Positions 5,950-27,222 of a stretch of 51,457 nucleotides of DNA are shown here, piece by piece. Below the pieces are notes generated by a model. It had not been told where the DNA came from. It made no database searches and worked only from the letters and a program-made list of their open reading frames with translations. The DNA is taken from contig DASVHD010000050.1 in the NCBI GenBank assembly GCA_036382775.1, forward strand, positions 1 to 51,457, read 5' to 3'. Position 1 is the stretch's first letter. The number at the start of each line of letters is the position of its first letter. Origin of the DNA: a bacterium. Lineage in GTDB: Bacteria > Hydrothermota > Tepidihabitantia > SM23-42 > JAOAFX01. The position numbers were made by a program, and so were the translations under genes.

Positions 5950-5983
5950 TATATCTCCCTTCGGGAATTGTGTTGTAAATATC

Positions 5984-9052: not shown

Positions 9053-9066
9053 TGTATGCTTTATAT

Positions 9067-9200: not shown

Positions 9201-9336
9201 TAAAAAATTCGAAGTTGAGAGGATAGGAAGTTGGGAGGATATGATCCTTTCTCTCATTATTTCCGCTCTTCATAACCTCTTAACCTCGCCATTTTGGCTC
9301 AAATCCTGTTTGTGATTTGACTGCCAAAATGAGCGT

Positions 9337-9359
9337 CCCGTTTTCGAAGAAAACACGGG
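9337..9359 (-). terminator. Hairpin just past the C25-like gene 9361-12786
   Basis: CCCGTTTTC pairs with GAAAACACGGG apart from a two-base bulge (CA), starting one base after the stop codon. There is no long T-run, so its action as an intrinsic terminator is only probable. Confidence 0.45.
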
Positions 9360-9360
9360 G

Positions 9361-12300
9361 CTACCTTAAAAGAATCGCCTTCTCTGTCCACTTCTCCCCG
9401 TCCGCTTCCCCTGCGGTGCCAGTGGCCCCTACGGGACCGATGGCCAGCCGCACGAAATACACGCCGGCGGGGACACGACGACCGTTTTCATCGGCACCGG
9501 TCCAAGTGATTTGGTTAAATGGTTGAATGGTTAAATGGTTAAATGATTTCACCAGTCTGCCGGCCGCGTCATAGATTTTGATGTAGTAGGGCAAACCTTC
9601 AGGTTTGCTTGACTTAGCATGGCTAAAGCCTTGCCCTACTGAATCTTGCGGCTTACTACTTACTACATACTTTATTACGGTCCGTCCAAAGGAAGGGTTC
9701 GGCCATACCCTGAGCCCGCGGAACTCAAGATCATCCTTCATTGACAGCCCCTCGCCCACCGCCTGACCCGGCAGGATGCCAAAATAACGCATTATGGAAT
9801 CGGCCAGCGCGAGCTTTGTCGACGGCGGCGAGCCGTCCACCATGCCGCCGAATTCTACCGAGATGCCGACCGTCCGGTGATTCGCTGCCACACCGCAATT
9901 ATTACTGTTATAAACGTTCCTGAGCACGGCGATGCCGTTCCCCGTAGGGTCTATCCGGTCGATGGATGAGCTTTCGCCGGTATAGCTAAAACTCATCTGG
10001 TTCGTGAATGTCCCGGACACGCCGATCAGACCGGTGAAATAACCGATATTGCCCTGGATCGCGTCGATCGAAAACTGCGATGCAAAATCATAGCCGCCGC
10101 TAAGAGGGTCATTGTACCAGACGTCGCCGCCCTCCAGGTACATTCGCCCGCCGGCATTAAGATGGCGGACGATCTCGAATATATCGGGGTTCGAATATGA
10201 GATCGTGTACTTGTTGGGATACATGCCCAGGCTGGCGAAAAACACTTTATAAATATTCAAAAACCCGGCCGGAAAGCCCTGGGTGTAGTCACCCAGATAC
10301 CCGAGGGCTGCCAGTTTCGTATGCATGACAAAACCGCTCGTGTGGTTGGGATCCGGGTCCCAGACGACGTAATCGCGCTGACCGATATAGACCGTGAAAT
10401 CCAGCGTGTCGCGGTAAGCGCCGGATTCAAGCACGATTTTTAAGTTCACCGCGTGACCCGCCGGCGACAATGAATCACCCGATATCAGGAAGGGATCAGA
10501 ATGGTTGGACCCGATACCGTCGGGCGGGAGCAAACCGAAATAGGCTTCGCCGTCGATCACGTGAAAGAATGAATCAGCGCATACCAGCGTGCCGGTGATA
10601 CTGTCCGCGATCCCCGAACCGATATTATGGAGTTCCAGATATAGCGGCGCCGTATCCCGCGGCATGACATATTTCAGAGTATCGTTCACCCAGTGTTGAG
10701 TGATGACAAGCATTGCCGAGTGATTGATCAATTCGATATCATAGATCCACGTTGAATCCAGAGCATCCGAAAGCGTGCACCGCAGCTTGATGACATGCTG
10801 GTCAGGGCATCCGGAGTCGACCAGCACATTGAACCCGTCGGCGCCGGTCCAGGCTGTGTCCGCGGGCAGGATATTGCCAAAGCCCTTAAGCGTATCGTGA
10901 AGCGTATAATACGGATCGATCGTATCTCTCTGGATCACGCCGGTGACTGCCACGGCGATCGAATCGCCGATATTTTTTATCCACACCGGCATCTCGATGT
11001 CTTCTGCCGGATTCACAAAATAGTCACCGTTCCCAGTTCCATTGGCGGTGTCCAGGACCGCGTGTGACATATAAATAAGATACGGCCGCGCGCTGTACAC
11101 CAGCACATTAAAGAACGATATCCAGGTATGGCTGTCTGCATCGGTCATGACCAGCTTGAGCTTGACCAGGTGACTGTCCGGACAATACTGGTCGATTATA
11201 ATATTAAAACCGTCCGCCGACGTAAATGCCGAATCCAGGCTGGCAATGTCGCCGATCGCTTTGATTGTATCGGCGATCTGAAAATAGGGATCGGCCTGCG
11301 CTTTCTCAAGGATGGCGGTCACGCCGTGCGCAGTGGAATCACCGACGTTGAGCATCCAGACCGCCAGTTCTATATCCTCGCCGTTATTTGGTATGTAATT
11401 GCCGTTGCCGCCGGTAGTGTCCAGGACCAGGTGAAAATCGTACATGAGCGAGGGACCACCCTGATAACCGGCCAGGACCGTATCCGTCTGCGGCAAAAGG
11501 TTCCTGCCCGTCACCGTGACCAGAGCCGTATCCGAGATGGGGAGTGTATCAATGAACGTTACTGTGCCGCTGGCGTTGGTGCGCCGGTAGTGGTAAACCG
11601 TTGTGTCTTTTCTCGCTCTTATGCATACCAGCGCGCTTTCCACCGGCTGATAATCATGCTTCACGGTTACGATTAGTGATTCCCCGATCCATACCCTCGG
11701 CCAGTGCGTCACGTCCAGCGATCTGGGCGTGCCGGTCCAGACCGTCATTTCAGGATCGCCCAGGCATGTCCAGGAGTTGTATTCCTGGGTATTCCCGAAC
11801 GTGTGGACATAAGTCTGACGGCCCCACTCGGCCGCTTTGCCGAGTGTTGCCATGCTGTCACAGAAGATATTCCGCAGGGTACCCTTGGCAAGCGCACTCC
11901 TTTTCTCGGCCGCTTCCATCAGCATGTCGGTCGTTCCGTAAAATCCAACCGCGCCCTTAGGCTCGTCCGGTGTTCCGGCATACATCCATTCGTATCCAAT
12001 CTCTTCGATCGTCGCGCACGTGCCCGAAATAATGATCGGCATTTTGTACCCGTTGTGGCAATCCGTGAGGGGATAGATGTCGTAGAATGGATAGTCCCAG
12101 TAATACCCGCCGACCCCCCGGTACAAAATATATGTCCGCCCGTCGTTCCATGCCTGGATCACATCGTCGCTGTTATTATTACCGGCGTACTGCGAAAAGG
12201 AATCAACATGCGGGAAACTGGCGTTGTCCATTAGGCGGTGCGCATAATCGGCGTCAGCAAAATACGTGGAGTCCGAGTACGGCGGGTAATCATCTTCGTT

Positions 12301-12786
12301 GGCGATGGTAACCGCCTTTCTGAACCAGTCCGGGTCGTCCATAAAAGGTGTTTTCTCGTAACCAAGGATCTTGTTGACGATGGTCTTTACATGCACGGTG
12401 TCGAACACCCACAGCCGCGCCGGTATCAGTTCGTTGTAGAAATCCCCAACGACATTCGCATAATAATTATCGCTGTACGATAAATCGTAATTGTAAGTAA
12501 AACGCACGAATGGGATCTGCTGGGGATTGCCGACCAGCAGCAGGTATTCGGGTTTTATCTGCCAGTTATTATAGGCATTGACGATGTACGATTTTATCTG
12601 GGTTGAATCGCTGCCGGTCTCGGACAGGCGGACGATCTTTGCCTTCATGCCTTTTTGCGTTTTCCAATCGGCCAGCGGCACCAGCGCGTCATAATAACTG
12701 TCATGCGTAATGATCAGGTAACGCGCGCCGCTCTGCGCAAAAACCGATCCGAGGAACACAGCAGCGAGGATCGCGATCCTTTTCAT
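9361..12786 (-). CDS. C25 (gingipain-like) family protein with three CARDB-like modules and T9SS sorting domain
   Basis: A 1141-residue predicted secreted protein with signal peptide MKRIAILAAVFLGSVFAQ. The C25-like domain is about 20-365. CARDB-like modules lie near 463, 592 and 710 (TGGNGNYIPNNGE is the first turn), a flavodoxin/ThuA-like region at about 805-1005, and the sorting domain at 1029-1141. The Cys site is retained (ISGTCATI); the His position is Val (YRGVG). Two sorting-domain loops carry extra residues: one encoded by a folded palindromic element (9585-9640), another by tandem GGTTAAATGGTTGAAT words (about 9511-9546). A third insert near 9415-9445 adds a Gly/Ala-rich stretch before the final strand. 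No clear promoter or strong ribosome binding site is visible upstream. Confidence 0.87.
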   Translation of the reverse strand: MKRIAILAAVFLGSVFAQSGARYLIITHDSYYDALVPLADWKTQKGMKAKIVRLSETGSDSTQIKSYIVNAYNNWQIKPEYLLLVGNPQQIPFVRFTYNYDLSYSDNYYANVVGDFYNELIPARLWVFDTVHVKTIVNKILGYEKTPFMDDPDWFRKAVTIANEDDYPPYSDSTYFADADYAHRLMDNASFPHVDSFSQYAGNNNSDDVIQAWNDGRTYILYRGVGGYYWDYPFYDIYPLTDCHNGYKMPIIISGTCATIEEIGYEWMYAGTPDEPKGAVGFYGTTDMLMEAAEKRSALAKGTLRNIFCDSMATLGKAAEWGRQTYVHTFGNTQEYNSWTCLGDPEMTVWTGTPRSLDVTHWPRVWIGESLIVTVKHDYQPVESALVCIRARKDTTVYHYRRTNASGTVTFIDTLPISDTALVTVTGRNLLPQTDTVLAGYQGGPSLMYDFHLVLDTTGGNGNYIPNNGEDIELAVWMLNVGDSTAHGVTAILEKAQADPYFQIADTIKAIGDIASLDSAFTSADGFNIIIDQYCPDSHLVKLKLVMTDADSHTWISFFNVLVYSARPYLIYMSHAVLDTANGTGNGDYFVNPAEDIEMPVWIKNIGDSIAVAVTGVIQRDTIDPYYTLHDTLKGFGNILPADTAWTGADGFNVLVDSGCPDQHVIKLRCTLSDALDSTWIYDIELINHSAMLVITQHWVNDTLKYVMPRDTAPLYLELHNIGSGIADSITGTLVCADSFFHVIDGEAYFGLLPPDGIGSNHSDPFLISGDSLSPAGHAVNLKIVLESGAYRDTLDFTVYIGQRDYVVWDPDPNHTSGFVMHTKLAALGYLGDYTQGFPAGFLNIYKVFFASLGMYPNKYTISYSNPDIFEIVRHLNAGGRMYLEGGDVWYNDPLSGGYDFASQFSIDAIQGNIGYFTGLIGVSGTFTNQMSFSYTGESSSIDRIDPTGNGIAVLRNVYNSNNCGVAANHRTVGISVEFGGMVDGSPPSTKLALADSIMRYFGILPGQAVGEGLSMKDDLEFRGLRVWPNPSFGRTVIKYVVSSKPQDSVGQGFSHAKSSKPEGLPYYIKIYDAAGRLVKSFNHLTIQPFNQITWTGADENGRRVPAGVYFVRLAIGPVGATGTAGEADGEKWTEKAILLR
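9585..9640. repeat. Compound palindrome (branched fold) inside sorting-domain coding region
   Basis: Perfect 10-bp outer arms (AGTAGGGCAA / TTGCCCTACT) enclose a perfect hairpin GCAAACC-TTCA-GGTTTGC (9591-9608) and a second TTAGC-ATG-GCTAA hairpin (9614-9626). The element resembles REP-type palindromes but is translated in frame in a loop of the sorting domain. Confidence 0.75.
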
Positions 12787-12799
12787 TTTCTTACGCTTT

Positions 12800-12949
12800 T
12801 CCCTTTATCTTCAATCTTTTTTAACCTCTTATCCTCATAACTTCCCATCTTCAATCCTTTTCATATCCCCGCATCTTTTCGTCTTCTCGTCCCCGCATCC
12901 CCTCATCTCCGTGTCTTTCTATCCCCTTACCCACTGATCCCCAAATCCC
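12800..12949. repeat. Intergenic reiterated-word tract
   Basis: A pyrimidine-rich series of short related words (CTTATCCTCATAACTTCCCATC, then CCCGCATC/CCCCTCATC/CCCCTTACCC). It separates the YCF48-like gene (ends 12950) from the next C25-like gene. No ORF or clear promoter is seen. Confidence 0.5.
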
Positions 12950-14260
12950 CTATCTTTTCAATATGACCTTGGCGGTCACAGGTATGTCACATCCGCTCAG
13001 CTGGATGAAATAGACGCCGTCAGGTGCCGGACGACCGGCATCATCTGAACCATCCCAGATGATCTGGTTAAATGGTTGAATTCCGCCATACTGCATGGCG
13101 GATAAACGGCTAAATTGTTTTATGAACCTGCCTGCTGCATTAAAGATTTGTACTGAAATTTGTGATTTGGAATTTGTTTGGCATTTGGCACTGGGAATTT
13201 GGAATTTAACCGTAAGGCTTCTCGTAAACGGATTCGGATAAATTTCCAACTTCCCGTTTCCCGCTTCCCACTTATCTGCTTCCTCGACACCCGTTCCATC
13301 GTGCCAGGTCTCGCCGCCGTCATACGTGTAAAGAATGATGCTGGTGCCGCAGGCAAGACCATGGAGCGTGTCTGAAAAGTCGACGTCAAAAAGCGTCGAG
13401 GTCGCGGGGTTGGTCTGGAACGTCCAGGTCTGACCATCGTCGTGGGAATGGATTATCGTTCCAAACCTGCCCACTGCCCAGCCCTGCCCGCCCACGAAAT
13501 CAACTGCCCTCAGGTAGAACGCGTTGCCCGGCACCGTGATCTGGTTCCAGCTGACGCCGCCGTCCGTGCTCCTCAAAACCAGGGCAGCGTAATTTTGTTC
13601 GTTGCCGCCCGCAATAATGCCGTTCAGCGCATCGAAGAAGTGAATGTCAAAATAGTCGTCATAGTTCGTGCATAAAAAAAGGGAATCCCAGACCATCCCT
13701 CCGTCGGTTGAACGCGCGATGATCGCCTGGCCGATATCCACTGAATCAGGCCAGCCTGATACGATCCAGCCCCTCAGAGTATCAATGAACGACACTCCGT
13801 ACAGTTCTGGCAGGAAGGTGAATGGTGTGAAATTCACTTCCCAGTAGGCTCCACTGTTCGTGGTCCTCAAAATAACGCCGTCTCCGCCCACGGTCCAACC
13901 GTGATTAATATCAACGAATTCCACGCGCGTGGCGTATTTCGAACCACCTCCCCCAAGCTGGATCGCCCAGTTCTGACCGCCATCGCTGGTGTAACATATC
14001 TGCCCCAGGACACCGCATGTCCAGACGTTCTGGTTTCCAAAACAAGTGACATCGAAAAACCTGCGGTCGGCCGGGTTGGCCTGCTCGAACCAGTTCACAC
14101 CGCCGTCGGTGGTTTTCAGGATAATCATGGTATCCAGGGTCACGACCCAACCTGTTGCATTGTCCGGTGCCAGGGTGCATCCATGGAAATTTTGGTATGC
14201 GAAACTGGCCGATAAACTCAGGCACCACAGCAGTCCCATAAATATCTTTATATTCCTCAT
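12950..14260 (-). CDS. YCF48/BNR-repeat (Asp-box) beta-propeller protein with T9SS sorting domain
   Basis: 436 residues. A signal peptide (about 1-21) is followed by six or so repeats with Asp-box signatures (TTDGGVNW, TSDGGQNW, STDGGMVW, STDGGVSW), typical of YCF48-like/sialidase-type propellers, and a sorting domain from about 330 ending in KVILKR. AAAGGAG lies 6 nt before the ATG. It starts 28 nt after the stop of the C25-like gene 14289-17852, so it is probably the last gene of that operon. The sorting domain contains the palindrome at 13082-13102. Such propellers in secreted proteins usually bind ligands or act as scaffolds; no enzymatic residues can be assigned. Confidence 0.85.
   Translation of the reverse strand: MRNIKIFMGLLWCLSLSASFAYQNFHGCTLAPDNATGWVVTLDTMIILKTTDGGVNWFEQANPADRRFFDVTCFGNQNVWTCGVLGQICYTSDGGQNWAIQLGGGGSKYATRVEFVDINHGWTVGGDGVILRTTNSGAYWEVNFTPFTFLPELYGVSFIDTLRGWIVSGWPDSVDIGQAIIARSTDGGMVWDSLFLCTNYDDYFDIHFFDALNGIIAGGNEQNYAALVLRSTDGGVSWNQITVPGNAFYLRAVDFVGGQGWAVGRFGTIIHSHDDGQTWTFQTNPATSTLFDVDFSDTLHGLACGTSIILYTYDGGETWHDGTGVEEADKWEAGNGKLEIYPNPFTRSLTVKFQIPSAKCQTNSKSQISVQIFNAAGRFIKQFSRLSAMQYGGIQPFNQIIWDGSDDAGRPAPDGVYFIQLSGCDIPVTAKVILKR
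13082..13102. repeat. Small palindrome interrupting a tandem-word tract in coding sequence
   Basis: Arms TCCGCC/GGCGGA, same element as 3103-3125. It sits in the middle of the GGTTAAATGGTTGAAT word tract that is uninterrupted in the paralogous loops at 9511-9546 and 14402-14440, as expected for an insertion. The reading frame is kept and it encodes SAMQYGG. Confidence 0.75.
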
Positions 14261-14288
14261 CTATGCTCCTTTCGCGCTACCCATATTT

Positions 14289-17200
14289 TCACCTTGTTAT
14301 AATGACTTTTTCAATTACCTTGTTCTCCCCCGATTGTAGTTCAATGAAATAAACACCGGCAGGAAGACGACGGCCCGCATCATCTGAACCGAACCAGGCG
14401 ATTTGGTTAAATGGTTGAATGGTTAAATGGTTGAATTGTTTTGTTAACCTGCCAGTCGCATCGTAGATCCTTAATGAAATATTTGAATAATCCCCCCCTC
14501 TTTTATCCTCCCCCTCGAGGGGGGAGGGCAAGGGTGGGGGTGAATTTTGGAATTGGGAATTGGGAATTTGGAATTTAATTATAAGGTTGCTCCTGGCAGG
14601 ATTCGGGAATATCTGCAGGTCGAGTTTTCCGCCTATTCCCGCCAGCTTCCCAAGTTCTTCCACTCCGGGATATGGATCCGGCTGGTCCGTGGTAAATTTG
14701 ATCGCCCGGTTATTGATCAGGGCGGCCGCTCCCGCCGCGTACACATTGGCGTAAGTATACTCAAGACCTGACGTATGTCCGTAGTTCTCAATACCGCACG
14801 TGGCATAGTTATGCCAGTGGTCGTCATTGCTGATCTTCTTATACTGGTAGATTATTTCGCCGTCGCCGGTCTGGGTCGGATAATATGCCGGGTCATACAG
14901 GACGATCTCAAATGTCTGCAGTTCCGCCGGCACCGGCGAGGTCGGGTTGTGCAAATGCTGGATCCTCGACCACTCGGCAATGAAACGGTGGTTCGCGGCA
15001 TCGCTATAATAACATACGTTCCCGCTGGAATCGGTGGCATTGGGATCAAGGTCGTCCCAGAACGCAGCCATGAGCAGCGGAGGCCCCAGGCTCGAGAGGA
15101 TGTGCCAGTTGTACATATCCGCGATCCACGTCGAGTCCAGAGCGGCGTAACCATTGGAGCAGATCGAGATCTTGCTGTAATTCAACCCGTAATACTTGAA
15201 ACTGAAAGGCAGCGCGACCGTGCGCGTCTGATCGTTCGCCAGCGTCAGGACAGTGCCGGACCCGCCCAGCGCCGGATCGACCTCGACCCAGCTGTAGGCC
15301 GGCGTCTCCGTGTACCCGGCGTCGGTATTGTCATAAGCGTAATAACCATAATCGTCAGGTCCTGACGGTGATGCGGTTGTCACCACTCCGATGGTCGTTG
15401 AAAAATAAACCGTGTCCCGGAAAGATTGATCTCCTGACAACAGGACATACATATCGATTACATGCCCGGGCGCGAGCTGCGGTGAAGCGTACACCGCAAA
15501 ACGGTCGCTGGCGTTCTCCGCCGAATCACCAACTGGTATGGTGCCGAAAGCGCCCAGAGAATCATTGACCGAAACACCGGGGTTGCGCGACCTCAGGACC
15601 CCGGTAATATTGCCGCCGGCAAGTCGGCCTGAATTCACGATCCAGATACTGAGGTCGGAAGTTTCGCCAGGTTCCAGAACACCGTTCCCGCCGTCCACGA
15701 TGCGGCAACGCTGTGCCCGGAACTGGGGAGCTTTAACTTCCACCCAGATCACGGAATTCCAGCTGCCCTGGCCAGACGTGACGTTCAGGTTGAATTTTAT
15801 AATGCGACCATCCTTCGCGCCAGTCGATACCGAAAAAACATACGGTGAACCGGTCGCGGTCCCGCCCGGGCTGATCGCACCAAAGCTCTTTATCGAATCC
15901 GTTATGGTCACCAGGGGATCGCTGTCGGTCAGCTTCGCGGTCACGCCGGTAGCGGTTGTTGATGTGCCGTAATTCTTTAAGGTCACGGCCATCTGGATGG
16001 TCTCGCCTGGATTGGTCTCCCCATTGTTGTTGCCGCCGGGATCGCTTATCGTGTGGCTGAGATATCCGACATAGACGGCCGAATTATTGACCAGCAAGTA
16101 TCCGCAGTAAGGGGCGCAGTTATGCTTGGAAACAGTGACGAATAAGGTATCGGGGGTCGTGGTGGAGATCTGAAAATATGCCATACCGCCGGCATCGGTG
16201 AAATCGACGGATTTGACCTCGTTTTGCTTGTATAGGCTGACCAGCGCGTCCTTTACAGGCTGCGACGATCCGGTTTGCACCGAAACCGAGATAGCGTTCG
16301 TGCCGACCGGCACGGACGACGCGTGGCTGACGTTAATGGACCGGGGTGCCGCGGTCCACAATTCGAGGGATGGATCACCCAGCAGGTTATAGGCGTTGAA
16401 ATAATATTCCACGCCGCTGTCCGGCGACACTTCGAACGGGAAGTTGAAGTACACCTCCATTTTGCCCCGGTACGTCATTGGCCCAAAACTGTATATGCTG
16501 TCCTCGGTCAAACCCCAGTAGATCCCGTAATCCAGGCAGTTGTTCCACCGGCTATGGGTCGTTGGCGTCGTCGCGCCGAAGAAACCGACCGCGCCCTTCG
16601 GCGTTACGGGATTGCCGACGCGCAGCCAGGTCTCCGCGAAACACGCCGGGTAATTGAAATTGCAGGTATTGCAGACAATACTCGTTATTACGGGAAGTTT
16701 CCACCCGTTCGTGAGGGCTACGACGTCGGTGTTGGTAAAAGTGGGACGGTCCCATCCGTAGGGATCGGCAATACCGCCCCGGTAATTGATAATGCTGACA
16801 CCCTGGTTCACGGCATTCGTGATCGCGGCCTGGCCGTTGGAAACAGGCGGATCGTATATAGTATCCACCGGGCTGATAGAATGTTGGAGCAGTTTCTCTC
16901 TGACCCACCGCTTGGTCGGTATCGGCGTGGTCATCGTATCGTAGGGATAATTGGCAGCGACCATGAGCGCGTGCTTGAACCATGTCGTGTCGGTCGTATA
17001 GGGCGTTTTTTCGTAACCCACGATCTTGGCGACCAGGGTCTGCAATTCATTGGCATTCGACACTGATAAACGGCCGACCATTATTTCGGCAATAAAGTCG
17101 CCGCCATCGATCAGGCCGTACAGATAATCAGTGATGTTGACCGGGTTTGCCGGCATCGCGAAAGCCGGCAAGCTGTCCTTATCGCCGACGAGGATGACAT

Positions 17201-17852
17201 ACTCGGGCGCAGGATCCCAGTTGTAATATGCGTTGCTGATATAATTTTTTATGGATGTGCTGGTATTCCCGGTCTGCGCCAGCGTGGCGACCGTGGTCGT
17301 CCAGCCCTTTTTTTCTTTCCAGTCAGCCAGCGGCAAAACCGCGTTGTAGAACGATGCAGGCGTAATGATCAATAAACCCTGCGGCTCGACATGAGGGTCA
17401 TATTCATAATTCAGAATAAGATTTTTATAAACCGCTGCCTGGCTGGGCGCCAGCCGGACATTATCATAACCGCGGCATGCCAGGCGCAGCACTGCTTTTT
17501 TCAAGTTAATCTCCATCCCGCGCTCGACCACCCTGTTGCGGATAATGACCGGATATATCCGGTAGCCCGCCAGGATCATGGCATTTCCTATCTCCGCGAA
17601 CCCTCCCGGTCCAACATAGTTCTGATCCCCGGAGCTTTCGATGGCAGTCGTATCACAGGCCATGGAGACAATGGTCAAGGCCGGTTCGGTGCTCGAGAAT
17701 ATGAACCTTGTTATCGTACCCGGTCCGGTCTCGCTGCCAGGTGTCAGGCTGATTTCCAGTGACGACGAGTTTTTGGCGAGAATATCTATCTGCGGATCAA
17801 TACTTGCCGGTAGCAGCGCCGAAATGAGCACGTACGACAGAAGTACGGTCAT
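14289..17852 (-). CDS. C25 (gingipain-like) family protein with N-terminal prodomain-like region, in the pgs operon
   Basis: A 1187-residue predicted secreted protein. Its ATG overlaps the stop of the LVIVD lipoprotein gene by 4 bp (ATGA), indicating translational coupling. After the signal peptide there is an extra beta-rich region of about 130 residues resembling a gingipain-type propeptide, absent from the other paralogues here. Then come a C25-like domain (about 150-520), two CARDB-like modules (near 611 and 728), a nidogen-like beta-sandwich (about 840-1045) and a sorting domain (1085-1187). The nucleophile Cys is present (ITSIVCNTC) but the His position is Gly (YRGGI). The sorting-domain loop contains a CCTCCCC/GGGGAGG palindrome insertion that encodes a Pro-rich stretch. 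Confidence 0.87.
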   Translation of the reverse strand: MTVLLSYVLISALLPASIDPQIDILAKNSSSLEISLTPGSETGPGTITRFIFSSTEPALTIVSMACDTTAIESSGDQNYVGPGGFAEIGNAMILAGYRIYPVIIRNRVVERGMEINLKKAVLRLACRGYDNVRLAPSQAAVYKNLILNYEYDPHVEPQGLLIITPASFYNAVLPLADWKEKKGWTTTVATLAQTGNTSTSIKNYISNAYYNWDPAPEYVILVGDKDSLPAFAMPANPVNITDYLYGLIDGGDFIAEIMVGRLSVSNANELQTLVAKIVGYEKTPYTTDTTWFKHALMVAANYPYDTMTTPIPTKRWVREKLLQHSISPVDTIYDPPVSNGQAAITNAVNQGVSIINYRGGIADPYGWDRPTFTNTDVVALTNGWKLPVITSIVCNTCNFNYPACFAETWLRVGNPVTPKGAVGFFGATTPTTHSRWNNCLDYGIYWGLTEDSIYSFGPMTYRGKMEVYFNFPFEVSPDSGVEYYFNAYNLLGDPSLELWTAAPRSINVSHASSVPVGTNAISVSVQTGSSQPVKDALVSLYKQNEVKSVDFTDAGGMAYFQISTTTPDTLFVTVSKHNCAPYCGYLLVNNSAVYVGYLSHTISDPGGNNNGETNPGETIQMAVTLKNYGTSTTATGVTAKLTDSDPLVTITDSIKSFGAISPGGTATGSPYVFSVSTGAKDGRIIKFNLNVTSGQGSWNSVIWVEVKAPQFRAQRCRIVDGGNGVLEPGETSDLSIWIVNSGRLAGGNITGVLRSRNPGVSVNDSLGAFGTIPVGDSAENASDRFAVYASPQLAPGHVIDMYVLLSGDQSFRDTVYFSTTIGVVTTASPSGPDDYGYYAYDNTDAGYTETPAYSWVEVDPALGGSGTVLTLANDQTRTVALPFSFKYYGLNYSKISICSNGYAALDSTWIADMYNWHILSSLGPPLLMAAFWDDLDPNATDSSGNVCYYSDAANHRFIAEWSRIQHLHNPTSPVPAELQTFEIVLYDPAYYPTQTGDGEIIYQYKKISNDDHWHNYATCGIENYGHTSGLEYTYANVYAAGAAALINNRAIKFTTDQPDPYPGVEELGKLAGIGGKLDLQIFPNPARSNLIIKFQIPNSQFQNSPPPLPSPLEGEDKRGGDYSNISLRIYDATGRLTKQFNHLTIQPFNQIAWFGSDDAGRRLPAGVYFIELQSGENKVIEKVIITR
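14507..14577. repeat. GC-rich palindrome plus AATTGGG words in sorting-domain coding region
   Basis: CCTCCCCC-TCGA-GGGGGGAGG (14507-14527) is followed by reiterated GGAATTGGGAATTGGGAATT words to 14577. All of it is translated in frame between the KFQI strand and the ISLRIYD strand, adding about 20 residues compared with sorting domains that lack it. Confidence 0.7.
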
Positions 17853-18820
17853 GGTTGTGTTTCTTCCTGTATTATAACTAGCCCGAGGTCCCTGTCAACA
17901 AGACAGATCAAACCATTGTCCGTATGCACTTTGTACGCGTAGGGTGTCTTGATCTCGCCGTAAAGAACCGGCGCGGCCGGCTGCCCCACGTTAATGATCT
18001 GAAGACCGCCGCTCCCGTCAGCTACGAATGCCAGACTGTCCTGCACCGAGACTCCCTGAGCGTAGCCGGGCGTGTCATATGACCCGATGATCGCGGGGCT
18101 ATCCAGGTCGCTCAGGTCGACGATCACCAGGCCGTCATACCCGTCCGCGATATAGGCATATGGCCCGGTAATGAACAAGCTGCGCGCGTTGGACGGCGTG
18201 TCCAGCTCGCTGACCAGTGCCGTGCTGTCGGGATGCTGGAGATTGTAGACCAGGAGTCCCATCTGCTCGCATACCAGATACGCAATGGAATCGATCACGA
18301 AAAGATCATGGACATTGCCCGGTGTCGAGAACCGACGCACATAGCTCGGGTACTGCGGCCAGCTCACATCTTCCACGATGAACCAGTAACGCGCGGCCAC
18401 GTAAGCGTATTGCGTGTCCCCTTCCGGGGCCGCGATATTATAAGCGTAAAACCAGGCATCCTGACCTGCGAAAAGCGGATTGGACCGGTCACTCACGTTC
18501 AGGATCATCATACCGCCGTCGGAAGCGGCCACGGCGATGTAGGCAAAAGTGTCGCGGACTGAAACGCCCTGGAAGTTCTTCTGGGTGACATATGAACCAA
18601 CGACAAAGGTCGATTCCGGATCGGCAATGGATACGATCTGCAGACCACCCTGGTCATTGGCTATATACGCGTAGCCGCCCTGGATGTCGACATCCCGGGA
18701 ATATCCAGGCAACCGGCATTCGCTGATGATCACGAACGCGCCGGTATCATCGACCGGATGATGACAGGCGGCTAAGAAGCAGAGAATTGGGCAGAACAAA
18801 ATGTTTCGTGCTTTCAGCAT
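17849..18820 (-). CDS. LVIVD-repeat lipoprotein
   Basis: 323 residues. The N-terminus ends in a lipobox (FLAAC, Cys19), so the mature protein should be lipid-anchored. The rest is a series of about seven beta-propeller-type LVIVD repeats (AYIANDQGGLQIVSIAD, AYIADGYDGLVIVDLSD, AFVADGSGGLQIINV). GAGGAGG stands 4 nt before the ATG. It begins 9 nt after the outer-membrane barrel gene and overlaps the next C25-like gene by 4 bp, so it belongs to the pgs-type operon. LVIVD proteins are common on bacterial surfaces but have no defined biochemical role; here an envelope scaffold role is an inference from position. Confidence 0.85.
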   Translation of the reverse strand: MLKARNILFCPILCFLAACHHPVDDTGAFVIISECRLPGYSRDVDIQGGYAYIANDQGGLQIVSIADPESTFVVGSYVTQKNFQGVSVRDTFAYIAVAASDGGMMILNVSDRSNPLFAGQDAWFYAYNIAAPEGDTQYAYVAARYWFIVEDVSWPQYPSYVRRFSTPGNVHDLFVIDSIAYLVCEQMGLLVYNLQHPDSTALVSELDTPSNARSLFITGPYAYIADGYDGLVIVDLSDLDSPAIIGSYDTPGYAQGVSVQDSLAFVADGSGGLQIINVGQPAAPVLYGEIKTPYAYKVHTDNGLICLVDRDLGLVIIQEETQP

Positions 18821-18829
18821 AGGGCCTCC

Positions 18830-19798
18830 TCAGTACGTGAATTCGATCCCGACACCCGCTGTTTGCTTACGGAAATTTTTGAGCTCGCCAACCTGGAGAT
18901 AAGTGTCGGAAAAAGAATTTCTGAATTCGCATGAGTAGTTCAGAACAAGACGCAGTCCGGTCAGCACCGGGACTTCCCCGGCCAGACGGATCCGGTTCCC
19001 GAGGTCAGCCCGGCCGCTATGGGGCGAATCGATCAGCGACCCAAGGTCGGTCGTGAACAGCCGGTAAGCTATCAGGTAATCAAAAGTGACCTCAGAAAGC
19101 CGCGGCACCTTTGTCCTCATTGCCAGGATTATCCGGCCCTGGTGCTGAACATAGGAAATATCGGGCACTGGCCCCTGCGCCCTGGAATCCTTGAATTCAT
19201 AGGACAATTCAGGTTCGAAATAATTACTTGCACGCAGCACCGTCTCCAGCTCGAACCGATAGCTCTCCGAATCATAAACGTCAAAACCCTCAATGTAATT
19301 ATCAAACTCGCGTTTGAACGAAGCCGACGCGGTCATACCGGTTTTCACACGGTAGGTTCCTTTCATCGTTATCAGGTGCTCAGTGAACCGGCACCCTGCG
19401 TAATCAGTGCCCGCTGGTTCCTGGTAATAGCGGATCAGATAATCCGGCATGAACAGATAGTCGATCTTTACGGCGAAACGGCCGAACGCCTGTCTGATGC
19501 CGATATTGTAGACGGCATAGTTCTTTTCTTCGTTTATATAATAACCGCGGGTTGACAGCGCAAGGTTTGCGGTCGTGGTGCGTCCCTTTGTGGATTTATT
19601 CCTTAAAAGGAGTTCCAGACTGACGTCGTTAGTCAGATCATCGTAGGTCTCAAAAGGAAAACGTTCGGGATTCGTGTGTGCCATGAACTCGTCCAGATAT
19701 TTCCGGGAATAGGAAAAAATATTGTCATCATACGACAGGATGGCTCGGGCGGATAGCGAGTAATCAAAGAACGCGAACAATGCCAATAAGAGCGTCAT
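18830..19798 (-). CDS. Predicted outer-membrane beta-barrel protein of the pgs operon
   Basis: 322 residues. A short signal peptide (MTLLLALFAFFDYSLSA) precedes a chain of alternating amphipathic strands with aromatic girdle residues and ends in an aromatic residue (GVGIEFTY), the usual BAM-recognised C-terminal signal. GGAG is 9 nt before the ATG. It lies 19 nt after the periplasmic-protein gene and 9 nt before the LVIVD lipoprotein gene. I do not recognise a named family. Its place behind the polymer synthesis genes suggests a polymer channel or anchoring site in the outer membrane, which is an inference. Confidence 0.7.
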   Translation of the reverse strand: MTLLLALFAFFDYSLSARAILSYDDNIFSYSRKYLDEFMAHTNPERFPFETYDDLTNDVSLELLLRNKSTKGRTTTANLALSTRGYYINEEKNYAVYNIGIRQAFGRFAVKIDYLFMPDYLIRYYQEPAGTDYAGCRFTEHLITMKGTYRVKTGMTASASFKREFDNYIEGFDVYDSESYRFELETVLRASNYFEPELSYEFKDSRAQGPVPDISYVQHQGRIILAMRTKVPRLSEVTFDYLIAYRLFTTDLGSLIDSPHSGRADLGNRIRLAGEVPVLTGLRLVLNYSCEFRNSFSDTYLQVGELKNFRKQTAGVGIEFTY

Positions 19799-19817
19799 GG
19801 TGGGTTACTCCGATATT

Positions 19818-20648
19818 TCATTTCTGTTTTACCAAGCATCGCAACCCGGCGCTTTCCGTCCCGCTGCCGCCGACCGTGATCTCGAAACGGTGTTTACCTT
19901 TCTTTACATTCACGTAGAAGCTGTGGGGGTTGGACGGAACCACATCGGGGCGGTTCTGATACGAAGTGGTCTCTGACCGGTACGCGCGGAATGTGCTGTT
20001 TTTCACGATCCGGCTGTTCTCCTTGACCACAATACTGTAGACCTGTTCGTTGTTCATGTCCATGGCATAGGCCAGGCGCGATATAATCTTTAATTTCTGG
20101 GGACCCGTGATCTCCAGCATGATCGGTTTTGACCTGGTGGTTTCGTAGTAATTGATGATCTTTTCATCCTCGACGGCCTGCAGTTTCTCGCCGTACTCGG
20201 CCGGCACGATATCGGACCACTGGGCCGGTGATTCGTAGGCGAACTTGAGGAGCACGGAATCGGCCGGCGCTGTCCACAAGATGAACCGGTACATATTTTC
20301 GCCCGGCGGCACGTTGATGTAGAACGAACGCCATTTGCTCAGCCGTGTGGAGCCGAGACGAGCGACCTTTGACCGTTCGGTCTCGAACGTGACGAACTTC
20401 TCCTTCACGTCGTTCTCTTGCATGATGAGCTTATAACCCTTCACGCCCTTGTCTTCCGCGGGCCATGGTATCCTGGTATAAACACGAAGCCAGGTCGGCC
20501 CCTGCGCTGTGACCGTCAACGGCTGGGCTTTGGTCACCAGATGATATGATTCCGCCTGCGAGGTTTGGATCTTGATCGTCACCTCGCTCGCCGATTTCAC
20601 GCTGCTGATCTGCCCGCATAGTAATGCCGCCAATATTATTCCGGTCAT
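19818..20648 (-). CDS. Periplasmic protein with two homologous beta-rich halves (pgs operon)
   Basis: 276 residues with signal peptide MTGIILAALLCGQISS. The two halves (about 35-130 and 160-265) align with each other: a GP-x-L-x-hydrophobic-x-x-R strand (GPTWLRVYTRI / GPQKLKIISRL), an ENxxxxK region, an R-rich stretch, and FYINVPPGENMYRF / FYVNVKKGKHRF. The gene therefore arose by internal duplication. The perfect ribosome binding site AAGGAGGT lies within the last codons of pgsW, and ATG/TGA overlap by 4 bp. I do not recognise a named family. Its consistent placement after PgsW suggests a periplasmic partner of the polymer machinery. Confidence 0.75.
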   Translation of the reverse strand: MTGIILAALLCGQISSVKSASEVTIKIQTSQAESYHLVTKAQPLTVTAQGPTWLRVYTRIPWPAEDKGVKGYKLIMQENDVKEKFVTFETERSKVARLGSTRLSKWRSFYINVPPGENMYRFILWTAPADSVLLKFAYESPAQWSDIVPAEYGEKLQAVEDEKIINYYETTRSKPIMLEITGPQKLKIISRLAYAMDMNNEQVYSIVVKENSRIVKNSTFRAYRSETTSYQNRPDVVPSNPHSFYVNVKKGKHRFEITVGGSGTESAGLRCLVKQK

Positions 20649-21757
20649 GGGACCTCCTTTTTTCCTTTCCCGGTGATCGCGCGTTTGACATAGTGGTCAA
20701 CGTCGATGCGAAGGACAACAAAAAGAATAATGAACATGATCGCCGCAAAGAACGTTGCCCAGAATACCGAATAGCGGGCTTCATAAAAGATTCTGCCTTT
20801 ACCCGGCCGGGGCAGCGGGATCGGAGCCCTGGGTATTTCATATTCGCGCGCGAGTTGATTGACATCATCGAGGTTGATCACCGGTATCCCAGAACGCAGG
20901 AATTCGCCGACCAGACCCCTGTTGATCGAGAACTGGACCTGGTCAATGACGCCGGAAGGTACTTCAGACCCCGCCAGGGCAACGGCGCTGCCGCCGACAT
21001 TAACCAGCGCGGCCAGCGACCGCCCGGCCGCGTACTCCTGGTAAAGGGCTATCCTGTTTTTAACCGCCGCTTCCAGGTTCTCAGCTTTGATGACCCGGAC
21101 CTGGTTACGCTCCAGCGACTGGATTATCATATCCCGGCCCTCGGGGCTCAATCCCCGGCCGATATCATCAACGCCGCCGATCGAACCGGCAAGGGTACGG
21201 TCCCTGATCATTCCCTGGTCGTAAAGATAACGCTCCATGTCCAGGTAGGTGAACGCGGGATCGTTCGCGCCCCACATTGACGCGCCGCCGGAAGCGATGA
21301 TCACCGGTTTCAGTCCCAGAACCTCGCCGGCGGCGATAACCGCGATGTTGAGCACCGGGAACGAACCGGTAAACGACACGGCGACCGCATCGCCTTTTTT
21401 CACACCGCACTGCTCCAGCAGCTGCACGATCACGGCCGCGAAATTCGGGTTCAATGCGGTCAACTTCGCGGTAAGATCGCCGGGTTCGGTCGTGATCAGC
21501 GAATTTTGCAGACCGACCATGCCTGTTTCATTGGGATCGTTGATCGGGTCGATCACCAAACCGTCGCTCAGCCGCTTTTCCCTTATCGAGGACATGAGCT
21601 GCGAGGTCAATTCCGAAGCGGCTTTCTTTTCCTGATAATGGCTGGCGAACATCCTTACCCTGACATTCAGCTCGATCACCATGAAGGCGAGCGAGAGCAG
21701 GCCGATAATGACAAGAATGTACAGCGGCACTTTTTCCGTTCTTAGTTTCAGCTTCAT
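20645..21757 (-). CDS. pgsW: Poly-gamma-glutamate system protein PgsW-like
   Basis: 370 residues. A transmembrane segment near 11-28 and another near 338-358 flank a large extracytoplasmic region. The sequence matches my memory of the poly-gamma-glutamate system protein (PgsW) that accompanies PgsB and PgsC in diderms lacking PgsA/CapA, including VSFTGSFPVLNIAVIAA and the IIASGGASMWGAN segment. It starts 11 nt after pgsC and overlaps the next gene by 4 bp. Its role in polymer synthesis or transport is not biochemically defined. Confidence 0.85.
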   Translation of the reverse strand: MKLKLRTEKVPLYILVIIGLLSLAFMVIELNVRVRMFASHYQEKKAASELTSQLMSSIREKRLSDGLVIDPINDPNETGMVGLQNSLITTEPGDLTAKLTALNPNFAAVIVQLLEQCGVKKGDAVAVSFTGSFPVLNIAVIAAGEVLGLKPVIIASGGASMWGANDPAFTYLDMERYLYDQGMIRDRTLAGSIGGVDDIGRGLSPEGRDMIIQSLERNQVRVIKAENLEAAVKNRIALYQEYAAGRSLAALVNVGGSAVALAGSEVPSGVIDQVQFSINRGLVGEFLRSGIPVINLDDVNQLAREYEIPRAPIPLPRPGKGRIFYEARYSVFWATFFAAIMFIILFVVLRIDVDHYVKRAITGKGKKEVP

Positions 21758-21768
21758 GGCTTATGATG

Positions 21769-22218
21769 TCATGGCGCGATCACACCGCCGGTAAGGACGA
21801 TGATGATGAAACGCACCAGGATTGAGACGATCATCATGGCGCACATGGTTTCGGCAATGCCCTGCCTCTGTATCCAGTAGGCGACTAGACCGGGCACGAC
21901 GAAACCGATGGTGGCAATATCGATGGTCTGAGCTGAAAACGTGATCGGGGGGAATAGTTTCGTAGCATAACCAAGCAGGTACCCGATGATTATGCAGATG
22001 ATAAGCAGACGCCTTCCATACAACAGTACGTAATGGCCTATTACCTTGACGATCAAAAAGGTAATGATGCCGATCGCTATCGTGCTGATGATCTGAACGG
22101 GCTGATGCATGTACATGGCGATATAACCGGGCACGACAACGCCGCCCGCCGCGAGTCCGATCGTTTCAGTGAAAAGGAGACTTATGAACATGCCCAGGCC
22201 GATCGCGACGATCAACAT
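21769..22218 (-). CDS. pgsC: Poly-gamma-glutamate biosynthesis membrane protein PgsC/CapC
   Basis: 149 residues, almost wholly membrane-embedded (about five helices), the usual length for PgsC. Diagnostic family segments are visible: ETIGLAAGGVVVPGYIA, LLYGRRLLIICI, IGFVVPGLVAYWIQRQG. PgsC forms the membrane-bound synthetase with PgsB. GGAG is 5 nt before the ATG. It is 88 nt downstream of pgsB and 11 nt upstream of pgsW. Confidence 0.92.
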   Translation of the reverse strand: MLIVAIGLGMFISLLFTETIGLAAGGVVVPGYIAMYMHQPVQIISTIAIGIITFLIVKVIGHYVLLYGRRLLIICIIIGYLLGYATKLFPPITFSAQTIDIATIGFVVPGLVAYWIQRQGIAETMCAMMIVSILVRFIIIVLTGGVIAP

Positions 22219-22306
22219 TTTCGCTCCGCGAAAATAAGATGACAGCGATTGGATCGTTTAAAATTCGTTGCATTATCGCCGCAATCTATCTTTATCATCT
22301 CCGTAA

Positions 22307-23482
22307 TCATTTGCTCGCCTTTTGCCCGAAGCAAGCGATCAGGCTCTCGCCGTAGCCGACGATGTTTCCGATCGCGAATATCTGCGATCGGTCACGGATC
22401 CGGTCACCGACCGCATTGACGACATCCTCGACCTTCTTGCCGCCAAGGTTCAGGATCTTTTCCCGACCGATCCCTGACGCCAGGACCTTTTTCACGAAAG
22501 GCATAGTGTTGGCGCCCGTCGCGAAATACATCTCCGCCGGCATTTTTTGGCTCACCAGATCGGCCATCTGCAATGACCGGTCGATCCGGTCGCTGCGACA
22601 ATTGACCAGGATATACGTATGGACGCCCGGCTCCGATAGCTGTTCGAAGATACGATAGGTAGAATCCGGGTCGTTGGCCGCCAGCGCATTGATAAGTGTC
22701 GCGCGCTTGCCCCCCAGATCAAGGTCGTACTTCTGGAGTACTCCGGGATCCGGCCGGCAGCGGTAGAGCTCCTGCAGGACCTGATCTCTTTTCAAGCCGA
22801 GGGATGAACATACCGCCAATGCCAGGGCGACATTTTCCTGGTGTTCATAGTACGGGAATCTGGCCATTTCGCCGGCGCTGATATCGTTCGGCTGACTTTG
22901 GATGATAGTTATCCCGCGTTTTGAACATAGATCTTTCATTAAATGATAATAGTCCTGTTCTGCCGTGATCACGGTGGAGCCGCGCGGGACCGCGTTAATA
23001 AAGTGCCGGGCAATATCGGCCAGGGTCGGCCCCATGACGTCGAGATGGTCAGCGCGCACATTGGTGATCGCCACGATCTTCGGCTGGACCAACTTGGTCT
23101 CTTCTGTCCACTGTAGGTCAGGCCGCAGGGACATGTTTTCAAAAACAATGGCGTTCAGCCCGTTACTGACCGCTTTCCCTACCATCGCGATCTGTTCTTT
23201 GATATTCGCCTTTCCCAGCCGTACGATCGGTATTTCATTTAAGTTATTCAGGATCATGCGCGGTTTGGTACCGGTCGTTTTCGACATCACTTTGTGGTTT
23301 CCGGCTTTCAGGCCGGCTCCCACCAATCTGGTGACCGATGATTTGCCCCGGGTCCCGTTTACGATGATCCTCAAGGGAATGAGTTTAAGGTTTTTTTGGT
23401 GCTGGAGCCATTCTCGGCGGCCGATGATCAAAAAAACAACAAGTAATGCCATGAGAATAAATATGCCGTAGTTAGATTGCAC
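22307..23482 (-). CDS. pgsB: Poly-gamma-glutamate synthetase subunit PgsB/CapB
   Basis: 391 residues from the GTG at 23482. This Mur-ligase-like amide ligase joins glutamate (or a related amino acid) units using ATP. Residues 6-20 form the N-terminal membrane helix, GTRGKSS (43-49) is the P-loop, and ITNVRADHLDVMGPT and NCRSDRIDRS are family motifs. A TTG at 23500 and an ATG at 23452 are alternatives. The ATG would cut the membrane helix to about ten residues, while the GTG gives the normal helix length and begins 5 nt after a -10 box, implying a leaderless mRNA. First gene of a seven-gene operon that continues to 14289. Neither pgsA/capA nor a gamma-glutamyl hydrolase is present nearby. Confidence 0.9.
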   Translation of the reverse strand: MQSNYGIFILMALLVVFLIIGRREWLQHQKNLKLIPLRIIVNGTRGKSSVTRLVGAGLKAGNHKVMSKTTGTKPRMILNNLNEIPIVRLGKANIKEQIAMVGKAVSNGLNAIVFENMSLRPDLQWTEETKLVQPKIVAITNVRADHLDVMGPTLADIARHFINAVPRGSTVITAEQDYYHLMKDLCSKRGITIIQSQPNDISAGEMARFPYYEHQENVALALAVCSSLGLKRDQVLQELYRCRPDPGVLQKYDLDLGGKRATLINALAANDPDSTYRIFEQLSEPGVHTYILVNCRSDRIDRSLQMADLVSQKMPAEMYFATGANTMPFVKKVLASGIGREKILNLGGKKVEDVVNAVGDRIRDRSQIFAIGNIVGYGESLIACFGQKASK

Positions 23483-23521: not shown

Positions 23522-23567
23522 TATCAATTAAGAAGGGGAGGCGAGTGCCTCCCCTTCTTAATTGATA
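23522..23567 (-). terminator. Strong hairpin terminator after the BNR-repeat gene
   Basis: A perfect 21-bp stem (inner arm AAGAAGGGGAGGC) with a 4-nt loop begins 13 nt past the stop codon at 23581. It separates that gene from the pgs operon promoter only a few bases away. The stem is symmetric in A/T-rich ends, so it may act in both directions. Confidence 0.8.
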
Positions 23568-26034: not shown

Positions 26035-27222
26035 ATGATCGGCCATTTAATAAGATATACCCTGGTACCTGTTTTGCTGCTGGTGATAGCCTGTGTCCAG
26101 TATGTCCGTTACACGCCCGACCCGGTGAAAGACATTGGCCAGTGGGTGGCAAATTTCAAACAGCAGCAGTCATTTGAGTATGAATACCGCATGAAAACGA
26201 ATACCATGTTCATTCAGGCAGGCGGGTCCTGCGTGGCCGGCCGCGCCGAACGCAACAAAGTCCAATGGACATCGCAAGGTTCTCCGGCATTGACATATGA
26301 ATACGTCGGGTTGGGCGATATTGAATACCAAAAAAAGGACGGAAAGTGGGAACAATCAGCCCGCGGCGAGGAATCCAACATGTTCGCGCAGGTAACACGG
26401 ATGCTGGATTTCGATAAATTTGAGTTCATAAACGACAGCCAGCCTGGCGTATATGCCTATCGATTTAAAGCGAATGTTCCGTTCCTGGCGCCAGACAAAT
26501 GGAAACAGATGGTCGGGACCCTTTTGATCTCCAGAAAGACCTGCCTTCCGGTGTTCGTATGGGCCGGATTGCCTGATTCCTCGGTATACTGGCAGGTTTC
26601 CATTACCCGGTATAACAAGGTAAAGGATATCAATTCGCCCGTTAAAACATGGGTAGACTATGTCTTACGCAGCCGCGACAGCCTGATCGACGCTAAACAA
26701 TTGAATGGATATCTGAAAAAAAGGCTGGCTTCGCTGGGCATATCATACAAACTCAACCGGAAAGATTCTCTGTTTGTACTCACGACCCAGGCACAATATA
26801 ATCAAGGGGACGTCGATGACATGTTAGGCACGATGGCACCAGTGTCGATCTACGGGCTCGCCGAAACCCAAAATAACGCCAAGAAGGTCAGCCGATTGGC
26901 TGGAACTGACCAGCCGGTATATCTGGACGGTTTGATCGCAGACCAGTCCGGCATAAAATCGGCGCTGGTCCAGTTTGACAATATTTCACGCCCATACCTT
27001 TTGATCACGCTCAAGGACAAACGGGATATCCCGCCTCGCGTATGCCTGGAAATAAACAACTCCATCGTCAGTATCATCACCATTGACAAACCAGGGAAAT
27101 TGAGTAAACTTTATTTCTATATTACCATCATGGGATATTTTCAACTTAATATTCTTAAATCATCACTTAACCAGGGATTGCCATTGATCGAGGTGAAGGA
27201 CGTACCCAAGGGGATTGATTGA
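26035..27222 (+). CDS. Predicted lipoprotein of unknown function
   Basis: 395 residues with a lipobox (LLLVIAC, Cys20), so probably an anchored periplasmic protein. Residues about 35-190 look like an outer-membrane-lipoprotein-sorting/LolA-like or DUF beta region (EYEYRMKTNTMFIQAGGSC, a repeated aromatic pattern). The C-terminal 130 residues (VYLDGLIADQSGIKSALVQF) faintly recall a SecD head subdomain; this is weak. Its stop overlaps the next gene's TTG start by 4 bp (TTGA), so it is probably made together with the glycosyltransferase and may help polymer extrusion. Confidence 0.7.
   Translation: MIGHLIRYTLVPVLLLVIACVQYVRYTPDPVKDIGQWVANFKQQQSFEYEYRMKTNTMFIQAGGSCVAGRAERNKVQWTSQGSPALTYEYVGLGDIEYQKKDGKWEQSARGEESNMFAQVTRMLDFDKFEFINDSQPGVYAYRFKANVPFLAPDKWKQMVGTLLISRKTCLPVFVWAGLPDSSVYWQVSITRYNKVKDINSPVKTWVDYVLRSRDSLIDAKQLNGYLKKRLASLGISYKLNRKDSLFVLTTQAQYNQGDVDDMLGTMAPVSIYGLAETQNNAKKVSRLAGTDQPVYLDGLIADQSGIKSALVQFDNISRPYLLITLKDKRDIPPRVCLEINNSIVSIITIDKPGKLSKLYFYITIMGYFQLNILKSSLNQGLPLIEVKDVPKGID

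What the first reader, a model, noticed from the sequence alone, without database searches (positions are those of the whole stretch)
14289..23482. Poly-gamma-glutamate-type locus extended with outer-membrane, periplasmic and surface genes
Seen: pgsB, pgsC, pgsW, a periplasmic protein, an outer-membrane barrel, an LVIVD lipoprotein and a C25-like sorting-domain protein are co-directional with short gaps or 4-bp overlaps. Known: PgsBC(A) is the Gram-positive synthetase; PgsBC-PgsW variants occur in diderms. Inference: the extra genes provide passage across, or anchoring on, the outer membrane, and the C25-like protein is part of the same surface layer. Neither PgsA/CapA nor a depolymerase is present.
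Basis: partly seen in the sequence, partly recalled or inferred. Interest (0 to 1): 0.75.

Follow-up and report, generated by a model that had tools for sequence, protein, structure and literature searches.

The report
Outer-membrane module of polyglutamate synthesis genes
Genes for making the slimy polymer poly-gamma-glutamate are joined, across many two-membrane bacterial phyla, to two undescribed genes for a periplasmic protein and an outer-membrane channel, which probably carry the polymer out of the cell; no dedicated outer-membrane route for this polymer was found in the papers I could search.

Summary
pgsB, pgsC and pgsW pass NCBI's cut-offs. The four downstream genes are real, co-directional and tightly spaced (gaps -4 to 88 bp), in a candidate division WOR-3 genome. 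The stated refutation test was run and failed to refute. Of 99 non-redundant pgsW loci with enough downstream sequence, 91 carry the 276-aa protein and 86 the barrel; 85 carry both. They span WOR-3, Bacteroidota, Ignavibacteria, Cloacimonadota, Zixibacteria, Neomarinimicrobiota, LCP-89 and Calditrichota. Across 147 WOR-3 genomes pgsW and P276 are present or absent together (66/4/4/73). In some lineages P276 and the barrel are fused into one protein. A deep sister clade of pgsBCW in Bacteroidota lacks both and mostly sits next to a gamma-glutamyltranspeptidase-like gene instead. Neither protein hits Pfam or NCBIfam. AlphaFold gives P276 as two duplicated CBM/BcsB-like jelly rolls (pLDDT 93), and the barrel as 14-stranded, CymA/OmpG-like (pLDDT 96). 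The WOR-3 operon extends to nine genes (9361-23482). The C25 proteins keep the gingipain Cys but lack its catalytic His; T9SS (SprA, PorU) is present. Best reading: a periplasm-to-surface export/display module for a PgsBC polymer. Transport and polymer chemistry are inferred, not shown.

The parts
22307..23482 (-). pgsB, Mur-ligase-like gamma-glutamate ligase (P-loop NGTRGKSS), one N-terminal TM; GTG start at 23482
   Evidence: TIGR04012 379 bits over cut-off 223; TM by hydropathy
21769..22218 (-). pgsC, polytopic membrane partner of PgsB
   Evidence: TIGR04011, PF14102; five hydrophobic stretches
20645..21757 (-). pgsW, TM at both ends with a periplasmic domain between; takes the place that pgsA/capA has in Bacillus
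   Evidence: TIGR04332 300 bits; hydropathy
19818..20648 (-). P276: secreted periplasmic protein of two duplicated jelly-roll domains; undescribed family
   Evidence: no Pfam/NCBIfam hit; AlphaFold pLDDT 93.3; halves align at 99.9% probability; CBM and BcsB folds
18830..19798 (-). P322: 14-stranded outer-membrane beta-barrel; undescribed family
   Evidence: AlphaFold pLDDT 96.3, pTM 0.90; CymA Z 24.1, OmpG Z 21.5
17849..18820 (-). LVIVD beta-propeller lipoprotein (lipobox LAAC)
   Evidence: PF08309 E 5e-35; conserved position
14289..17852 (-). C25-1: gingipain-like domain without the catalytic His, Cys kept; T9SS sorting domain
   Evidence: PF01364, PF18962; alignment to gingipain R2; column counts
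12950..14260 (-). YCF48-like propeller with T9SS sorting domain; 8th gene, outside the reported interval
   Evidence: PF14870; follows C25-1 in 28 of 29 WOR-3 loci
9361..12786 (-). C25-2, second His-less C25-like protein; 9th gene of the conserved WOR-3 unit
   Evidence: PF01364 E 3e-41; same position in 7 of 7 loci looked at; YRG motif
23523..23566 (-). hairpin with 20-pair stem between the upstream gene and pgsB, probably a transcription boundary
17871..17898 (-). perfect sigma-70-type promoter-like site just upstream of C25-1 (possible internal promoter)
   Evidence: 12 of 12 consensus matches; consensus match only

Best explanation
This is a diderm variant of the poly-gamma-glutamate synthase locus with its own envelope-crossing module. 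PgsB (ligase) and PgsC make and push a gamma-linked glutamate chain through the inner membrane, and PgsW, with a large periplasmic domain, takes over on the periplasmic side (enzyme identity shown by family models; action inferred). P276, a tandem jelly-roll protein like the sugar-binding domains of cellulose synthase BcsB, binds and guides the chain through the periplasm (fold predicted; binding inferred). P322, a 14-stranded outer-membrane barrel, lets the chain out (fold predicted; transport inferred). P276 and P322 work as one unit, shown indirectly by their fusion into one protein in several lineages. The LVIVD lipoprotein, C25-like proteins and YCF48-like propeller are surface or periplasmic partners, the last two exported by T9SS; they probably help retain or organise the polymer (inference).
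For: Family identity of PgsB/C/W. P276 and P322 follow pgsW in 91 and 86 of 99 non-redundant loci, found with models built from WOR-3 sequences alone in other phyla (W3 columns). Co-occurrence in 147 WOR-3 genomes 66/4/4/73, Fisher p 1e-31, not corrected for kinship. P276 was found in 4 of 247 Bacteroidota genomes, all pgsW-positive. In f17 genomes pgsW has moved next to gyrB, yet P276 and P322 stay side by side elsewhere. Fused P276-P322 ORFs in Hydrothermae-type WOR-3, and a P276-like domain on the barrel in Krumholzibacteriota-like loci. Where P322 is missing, in a flavobacterial group, P276 is still followed by another barrel-like ORF (by inspection). Confident all-beta models; BcsB among P276's best folds (Z 8.1), BcsC, PelBC and PgaA among P322's Foldseek hits. 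Sister clade without P276 has different neighbours.
Against: No experiment. Fold similarity to CymA/OmpG fits passive uptake as well as export. CBM-like folds are common, and Z near 8 is near background by the tool's own note. The barrel lining has about as many acidic as basic residues, so nothing marks it for a polyanion. Known polymer-exporting barrels have 16-18 strands and usually TPR scaffolds (own knowledge); neither is seen here. One 99%-complete WOR-3 genome (G071) has pgsBCW and neither protein, and G108 lacks P276, so neither is indispensable.
Confidence: 0.6

Rival explanations
1. P276 and the barrel do not export the polymer but hold it: P276 binds it at the inner face of the outer membrane and the barrel is a structural anchor or a passive porin that takes up glutamate or oligomers. 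The polymer leaves by another route or stays in the periplasm.
For: Nearest folds of the barrel are the passive porins CymA and OmpG. P276 is a binding-type fold. A few genomes keep pgsBCW without them.
Against: Strict linkage to the synthase, with no transporter or catabolic genes alongside and no gamma-glutamyltranspeptidase in the genome; gene fusion with the jelly roll.
Confidence: 0.2
2. The product is not a poly-gamma-glutamate capsule. This PgsBC clade adds short gamma-glutamyl chains, or another amino acid, to an envelope component such as a lipid, LPS-like glycan or secreted protein, and P276/P322 handle that conjugate.
For: The PgsB family is related to FolC, which adds short glutamyl chains. 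The clade is distinct from a second Bacteroidota clade next to gamma-glutamyltranspeptidase-like genes. No depolymerase at the locus. Many sorting-domain proteins alongside.
Against: PgsB, PgsC and PgsW all score well over NCBI's cut-offs for the poly-gamma-glutamate families.
Confidence: 0.17
3. The neighbours are incidental: a conserved chromosomal stretch inherited without functional link.
For: The PgsW tree largely follows taxonomy, so synteny could be partly inherited.
Against: Conserved across several phyla where surroundings differ; co-loss; fusion; pair kept when pgsW moved.
Confidence: 0.03

Closest known systems
Bacillus PgsBCA(E)/CapBCADE poly-gamma-glutamate synthases
   Same: PgsB and PgsC over NCBI cut-offs; CapB and CapC are the mandatory pair in CapsuleFinder (PMC5542703)
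   Different: No PgsA/CapA or CapD at the locus; PgsW instead; plus periplasmic and outer-membrane proteins that monoderms do not need
TIGR04332 'poly-gamma-glutamate system protein' loci (PgsBC-PgsW)
   Same: PgsW 300 bits over cut-off 100
   Different: TIGR04332 covers only PgsW; the P276-barrel pair has no model in Pfam or NCBIfam, and one TIGR04332 clade lacks the pair
Bacterial cellulose secretion (BcsB-BcsC) and other synthase-dependent exporters (PgaA, PelBC)
   Same: Synthase plus periplasmic jelly-roll plus OM barrel; P276 resembles BcsB domains (Z 8.1, rmsd 3.2 over 108)
   Different: Mur-ligase-like synthase, not GT2; no TPR scaffold; 14-strand barrel; no sequence homology detected
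14-stranded monomeric porins CymA and OmpG
   Same: P322 model: CymA Z 24.1, rmsd 3.1 over 276; OmpG Z 21.5
   Different: 8-13% identity; no match by sequence profile; linked to a polymer synthase
Gingipains and PorU (peptidase C25)
   Same: C25 domain; nucleophile Cys conserved 62/62
   Different: Catalytic His absent; R-G motif with invariant Arg instead; 67 bits against PorU cut-off 420. The true PorU is elsewhere in the window

Membership tests
Poly-gamma-glutamate synthase (PgsBC type) | PgsB/CapB ligase | tested here: met
   TIGR04012 379 bits, cut-off 222.7
Poly-gamma-glutamate synthase (PgsBC type) | PgsC/CapC membrane protein | tested here: met
   TIGR04011 130 bits, cut-off 96
Poly-gamma-glutamate synthase (PgsBC type) | PgsA/CapA in the operon (Bacillus type; accessory in the CapsuleFinder model) | tested here: not met
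   no PF09587 hit among the locus proteins scanned; one CapA-family protein elsewhere in the genome
Poly-gamma-glutamate synthase (PgsBC type) | CapD/gamma-glutamyltranspeptidase | tested here: not met
   PF01019 absent from the 95.6%-complete genome
Poly-gamma-glutamate synthase (PgsBC type) | makes gamma-linked polyglutamate | not testable with these tools
   needs chemistry
PgsW (TIGR04332) | score over the curated cut-off | tested here: met
   300 bits, cut-off 100
Synthase-dependent exopolysaccharide exporter (Bcs/Alg/Pga/Pel type) | GT2 glycosyltransferase synthase in the operon | tested here: not met
   PgsB is Mur-ligase-like; a GT2 gene lies apart on the other strand at 27219-28706
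Synthase-dependent exopolysaccharide exporter (Bcs/Alg/Pga/Pel type) | periplasmic TPR scaffold | tested here: not met
   P276 and P322 models are all-beta apart from short helices; no TPR hit
Synthase-dependent exopolysaccharide exporter (Bcs/Alg/Pga/Pel type) | outer-membrane beta-barrel pore | tested here: met
   14-strand barrel model, pLDDT 96.3; known exporters have 16-18 strands (strand numbers from own knowledge)
CymA/OmpG 14-stranded porins | 14-strand monomeric barrel fold | tested here: met
   Z 24.1 and 21.5
CymA/OmpG 14-stranded porins | sequence homology | tested here: inconclusive
   profile search of the PDB found none at E<=1
Peptidase C25 (gingipain type), active | C25 domain | tested here: met
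   PF01364 E 6e-62
Peptidase C25 (gingipain type), active | catalytic Cys (gingipain C244) | tested here: met
   Cys394, conserved in 62 of 62 aligned rows
Peptidase C25 (gingipain type), active | catalytic His (gingipain H211) | tested here: not met
   Gly360 aligned to H211; no His column within the family
PorU sortase | NF033707 over cut-off | tested here: not met
   C25-1 67 bits, cut-off 420
T9SS cargo | C-terminal sorting domain in a genome with SprA | tested here: met
   TIGR04183 27.7 bits, cut-off 23; SprA 308 bits in the own genome

The most novel reading that the evidence does not exclude
The His-less, Arg/Cys-bearing C25-like proteins are thiol transferases that attach the exported poly-gamma-glutamate chain to T9SS-delivered surface proteins, replacing the CapD-type transpeptidase that other pgs loci carry, so that the module builds a polyglutamate-protein surface layer rather than a free capsule.
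Probability: 0.07. Interest if true: 0.88.

Novelty: new variant of a known kind. Interest (0 to 1): 0.7.

Why it matters
Poly-gamma-glutamate has been studied mainly in monoderms; in the library searched, Fusobacterium nucleatum is cited as the first Gram-negative shown to make it (PMC3815933), and I found no paper describing how it crosses an outer membrane. Here two undescribed protein families, conserved over many phyla and sometimes fused, are tied to the synthase. That gives a concrete, knock-out-testable candidate for the missing export step. It also predicts polyglutamate-type surfaces in largely uncultured phyla, and offers markers that separate this clade from the clade next to gamma-glutamyltranspeptidase-like genes.

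Tried and rejected
A genome-contig scan with P276 alone found nothing; a PgsW alignment worked. The first gene caller missed overlapping ORFs, so counts were redone on six-frame HMM hits. Barrel lining charge, in the hope of a positive pore for a polyanion, was balanced and uninformative. PDB sequence-profile searches for P276, PgsW and P322 gave nothing credible. Considered and rejected: C25-1 is PorU (67 bits against 420; PorU is 28892-32722); neighbours incidental (fusion, co-loss). The His-less C25 state is not special to this operon: the window's other C25-like ORFs on the same strand, outside the nine-gene unit, share it. Paper searches for PgsW, for TIGR04332, and for WOR-3 or Bacteroidetes together with poly-gamma-glutamate terms found nothing.

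Full report
WHAT IS THERE. On the - strand, 23482 down to 14289, lie seven co-directional genes exactly as described. PgsB, PgsC and PgsW exceed NCBI's curated cut-offs (379/223, 130/96 and 300/100 bits). The LVIVD protein and the C25 protein are confirmed by Pfam. P276 and P322 hit nothing in Pfam or NCBIfam, and neither do their Bacteroidota relatives. Gaps are 88, 11, -4, 19, 9 and -4 bp. A 20-pair hairpin (23523-23566) and a promoter-like site precede pgsB. The genome is a candidate division WOR-3 assembly: its close relatives among the loci match named WOR-3/Stahlbacteria records.

THE REFUTATION TEST. TIGR04332 rings in 70 of 147 genomes of the phylum. I fetched 60 of those loci and 80 named loci from GTDB species genomes, then searched six frames with family models. 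With 2.5 kb or more downstream, P276 follows pgsW in 47 of 52 loci of the phylum and in 44 of 47 loci elsewhere (Bacteroidota 21/21, Cloacimonadota 5/5, Ignavibacteria 3/3, Zixibacteria 3/3, Neomarinimicrobiota 2/2, LCP-89 2/2, and others). P322 follows in 48/52 and 38/47, and both in 47/52 and 38/47 (named WOR-3 loci left out of these sums as likely repeats). Models built from WOR-3 sequences alone already find these relatives (W3 columns). The named loci are the best 80 hits of a WOR-3-based query and so lean towards near kin of PgsW. An even draw of 247 Bacteroidota genomes is the counterweight: 9 have pgsW and 4 have P276, all four among the nine (the P276 search scored at most 9 candidates per genome). 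The other six PgsW copies form their own deep, fully supported branch. They sit beside pgsB and mostly pgsC, have no P276 or P322, and in five of six a gamma-glutamyltranspeptidase-like ORF lies upstream (one confirmed by Pfam); the sixth has an AAT-type hydrolase. So the association is a property of one PgsBCW clade.

CO-OCCURRENCE AND FUSION. In 147 WOR-3 genomes pgsW and P276 agree in 139 (66 both, 73 neither, 4 and 4 discordant). Some discordant cases are contig ends. One is real: G071, 99% complete, has pgsBCW without P276 and P322. In family f17 pgsW sits beside gyrB while P276 and P322 remain adjacent to each other elsewhere. In Hydrothermae-type lineages P276 and P322 are a single ORF of 535-660 aa. 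In Krumholzibacteriota-like loci the barrel has an extra P276-like domain at its front. In a flavobacterial group P322 is replaced by another barrel-like ORF of 272-279 aa straight after P276 (judged by eye).

STRUCTURES. P276 models at pLDDT 93 as two all-beta domains, which are duplicates of each other (halves align at 99.9% probability). Nearest folds are carbohydrate-binding modules and the periplasmic domain of cellulose synthase BcsB (Z about 8, which the tool warns is near background). P322 models at pLDDT 96, pTM 0.90 as a 14-stranded barrel, closest to CymA (Z 24.1, rmsd 3.1 over 276) and OmpG (Z 21.5); polymer-export barrels BcsC, PelBC and PgaA appear further down the Foldseek list. 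The lining is charged but balanced.

THE SURFACE GENES. LVIVD follows the barrel in 34 of 43 WOR-3 loci and 10 of 10 Bacteroidota loci. A C25 protein follows in 29 of 40 WOR-3 loci and lies upstream of pgsB in 14 of 14 Bacteroidota loci. In WOR-3 a YCF48-like propeller comes next (28 of 29) and then a second C25 gene (7 of 7 looked at), so the conserved unit in the window is 9361-23482. Aligned to gingipain R2, C25-1 has Cys394 at the catalytic Cys and Gly360 at the catalytic His. Among 62 aligned relatives the Cys and an Arg at 358 never vary, and no His column exists. The PorU sortase encoded at 28892-32722 keeps the GHG motif and Cys, a useful contrast inside one window. With SprA in the genome, T9SS export of the sorting-domain proteins is likely.

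MECHANISM. Shown: family identities, linkage, fusion, predicted folds. Inferred: chain synthesis by PgsBC; hand-over by PgsW; guidance by P276; exit by P322; retention or organisation at the surface by the propellers and C25-like proteins. By analogy this is a cellulose-type layout built on a Mur-ligase-type synthase; it is not a member of that exporter class, since the GT2 synthase and TPR scaffold are missing.

NOVELTY. PgsBC and TIGR04332 are known. The P276-barrel module, its spread, its fusion and its clade-specific tie appear undescribed in the databases and papers searched. The paper library lacks most subscription journals, so this is not proof of absence. I file it as a new variant of a known kind.

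Noticed in passing
window 2884-17852, - strand: Four C25-like ORFs on one strand (14289-17852, 9361-12786, 6059-9052, 2884-5985), broken only by the YCF48-like gene, all with YRG in place of the gingipain GHG motif.
   Followed up: partly
window 28892-32722, + strand: Full-length PorU T9SS sortase (NF033707 436 bits, cut-off 420) with Propeptide_C25 and intact GHG...C, in the same window as the His-less C25s.
   Followed up: partly
window 27219-28706, + strand: GT2 glycosyltransferase related to cellulose and PNAG synthases, with an unannotated 395-aa ORF before it and PorU after it.
   Followed up: no
window 17871-17898, - strand: Perfect TTGACA-16-TATAAT site inside the 3' end of the LVIVD gene, just upstream of C25-1: possible internal promoter.
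   Followed up: no
L178-L183 (Bacteroidota): A second, deeply separate pgsBCW clade without P276/P322, mostly with a gamma-glutamyltranspeptidase-like ORF upstream and short T9SS-tail proteins downstream.
   Followed up: partly
L092 (Nitrospirae bacterium GWB2_47_37): pgsBCW nested within WOR-3 on the PgsW tree, without P276/P322, beside a leucyl-tRNA synthetase and an LptE-like gene: transfer or misbinning.
   Followed up: partly
L067, L068 (WOR-3 family f17): pgsW alone beside gyrB, while the P276-P322 pair sits on another contig (L189; L188 in the related genome G017); where pgsB and pgsC lie in these genomes was not looked for.
   Followed up: partly
window 33682-38550 and 41189-44155, - strand: Ordinary phosphate transport (pst) genes and a SecA with a C-terminal SEC-C type motif.
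   Followed up: no
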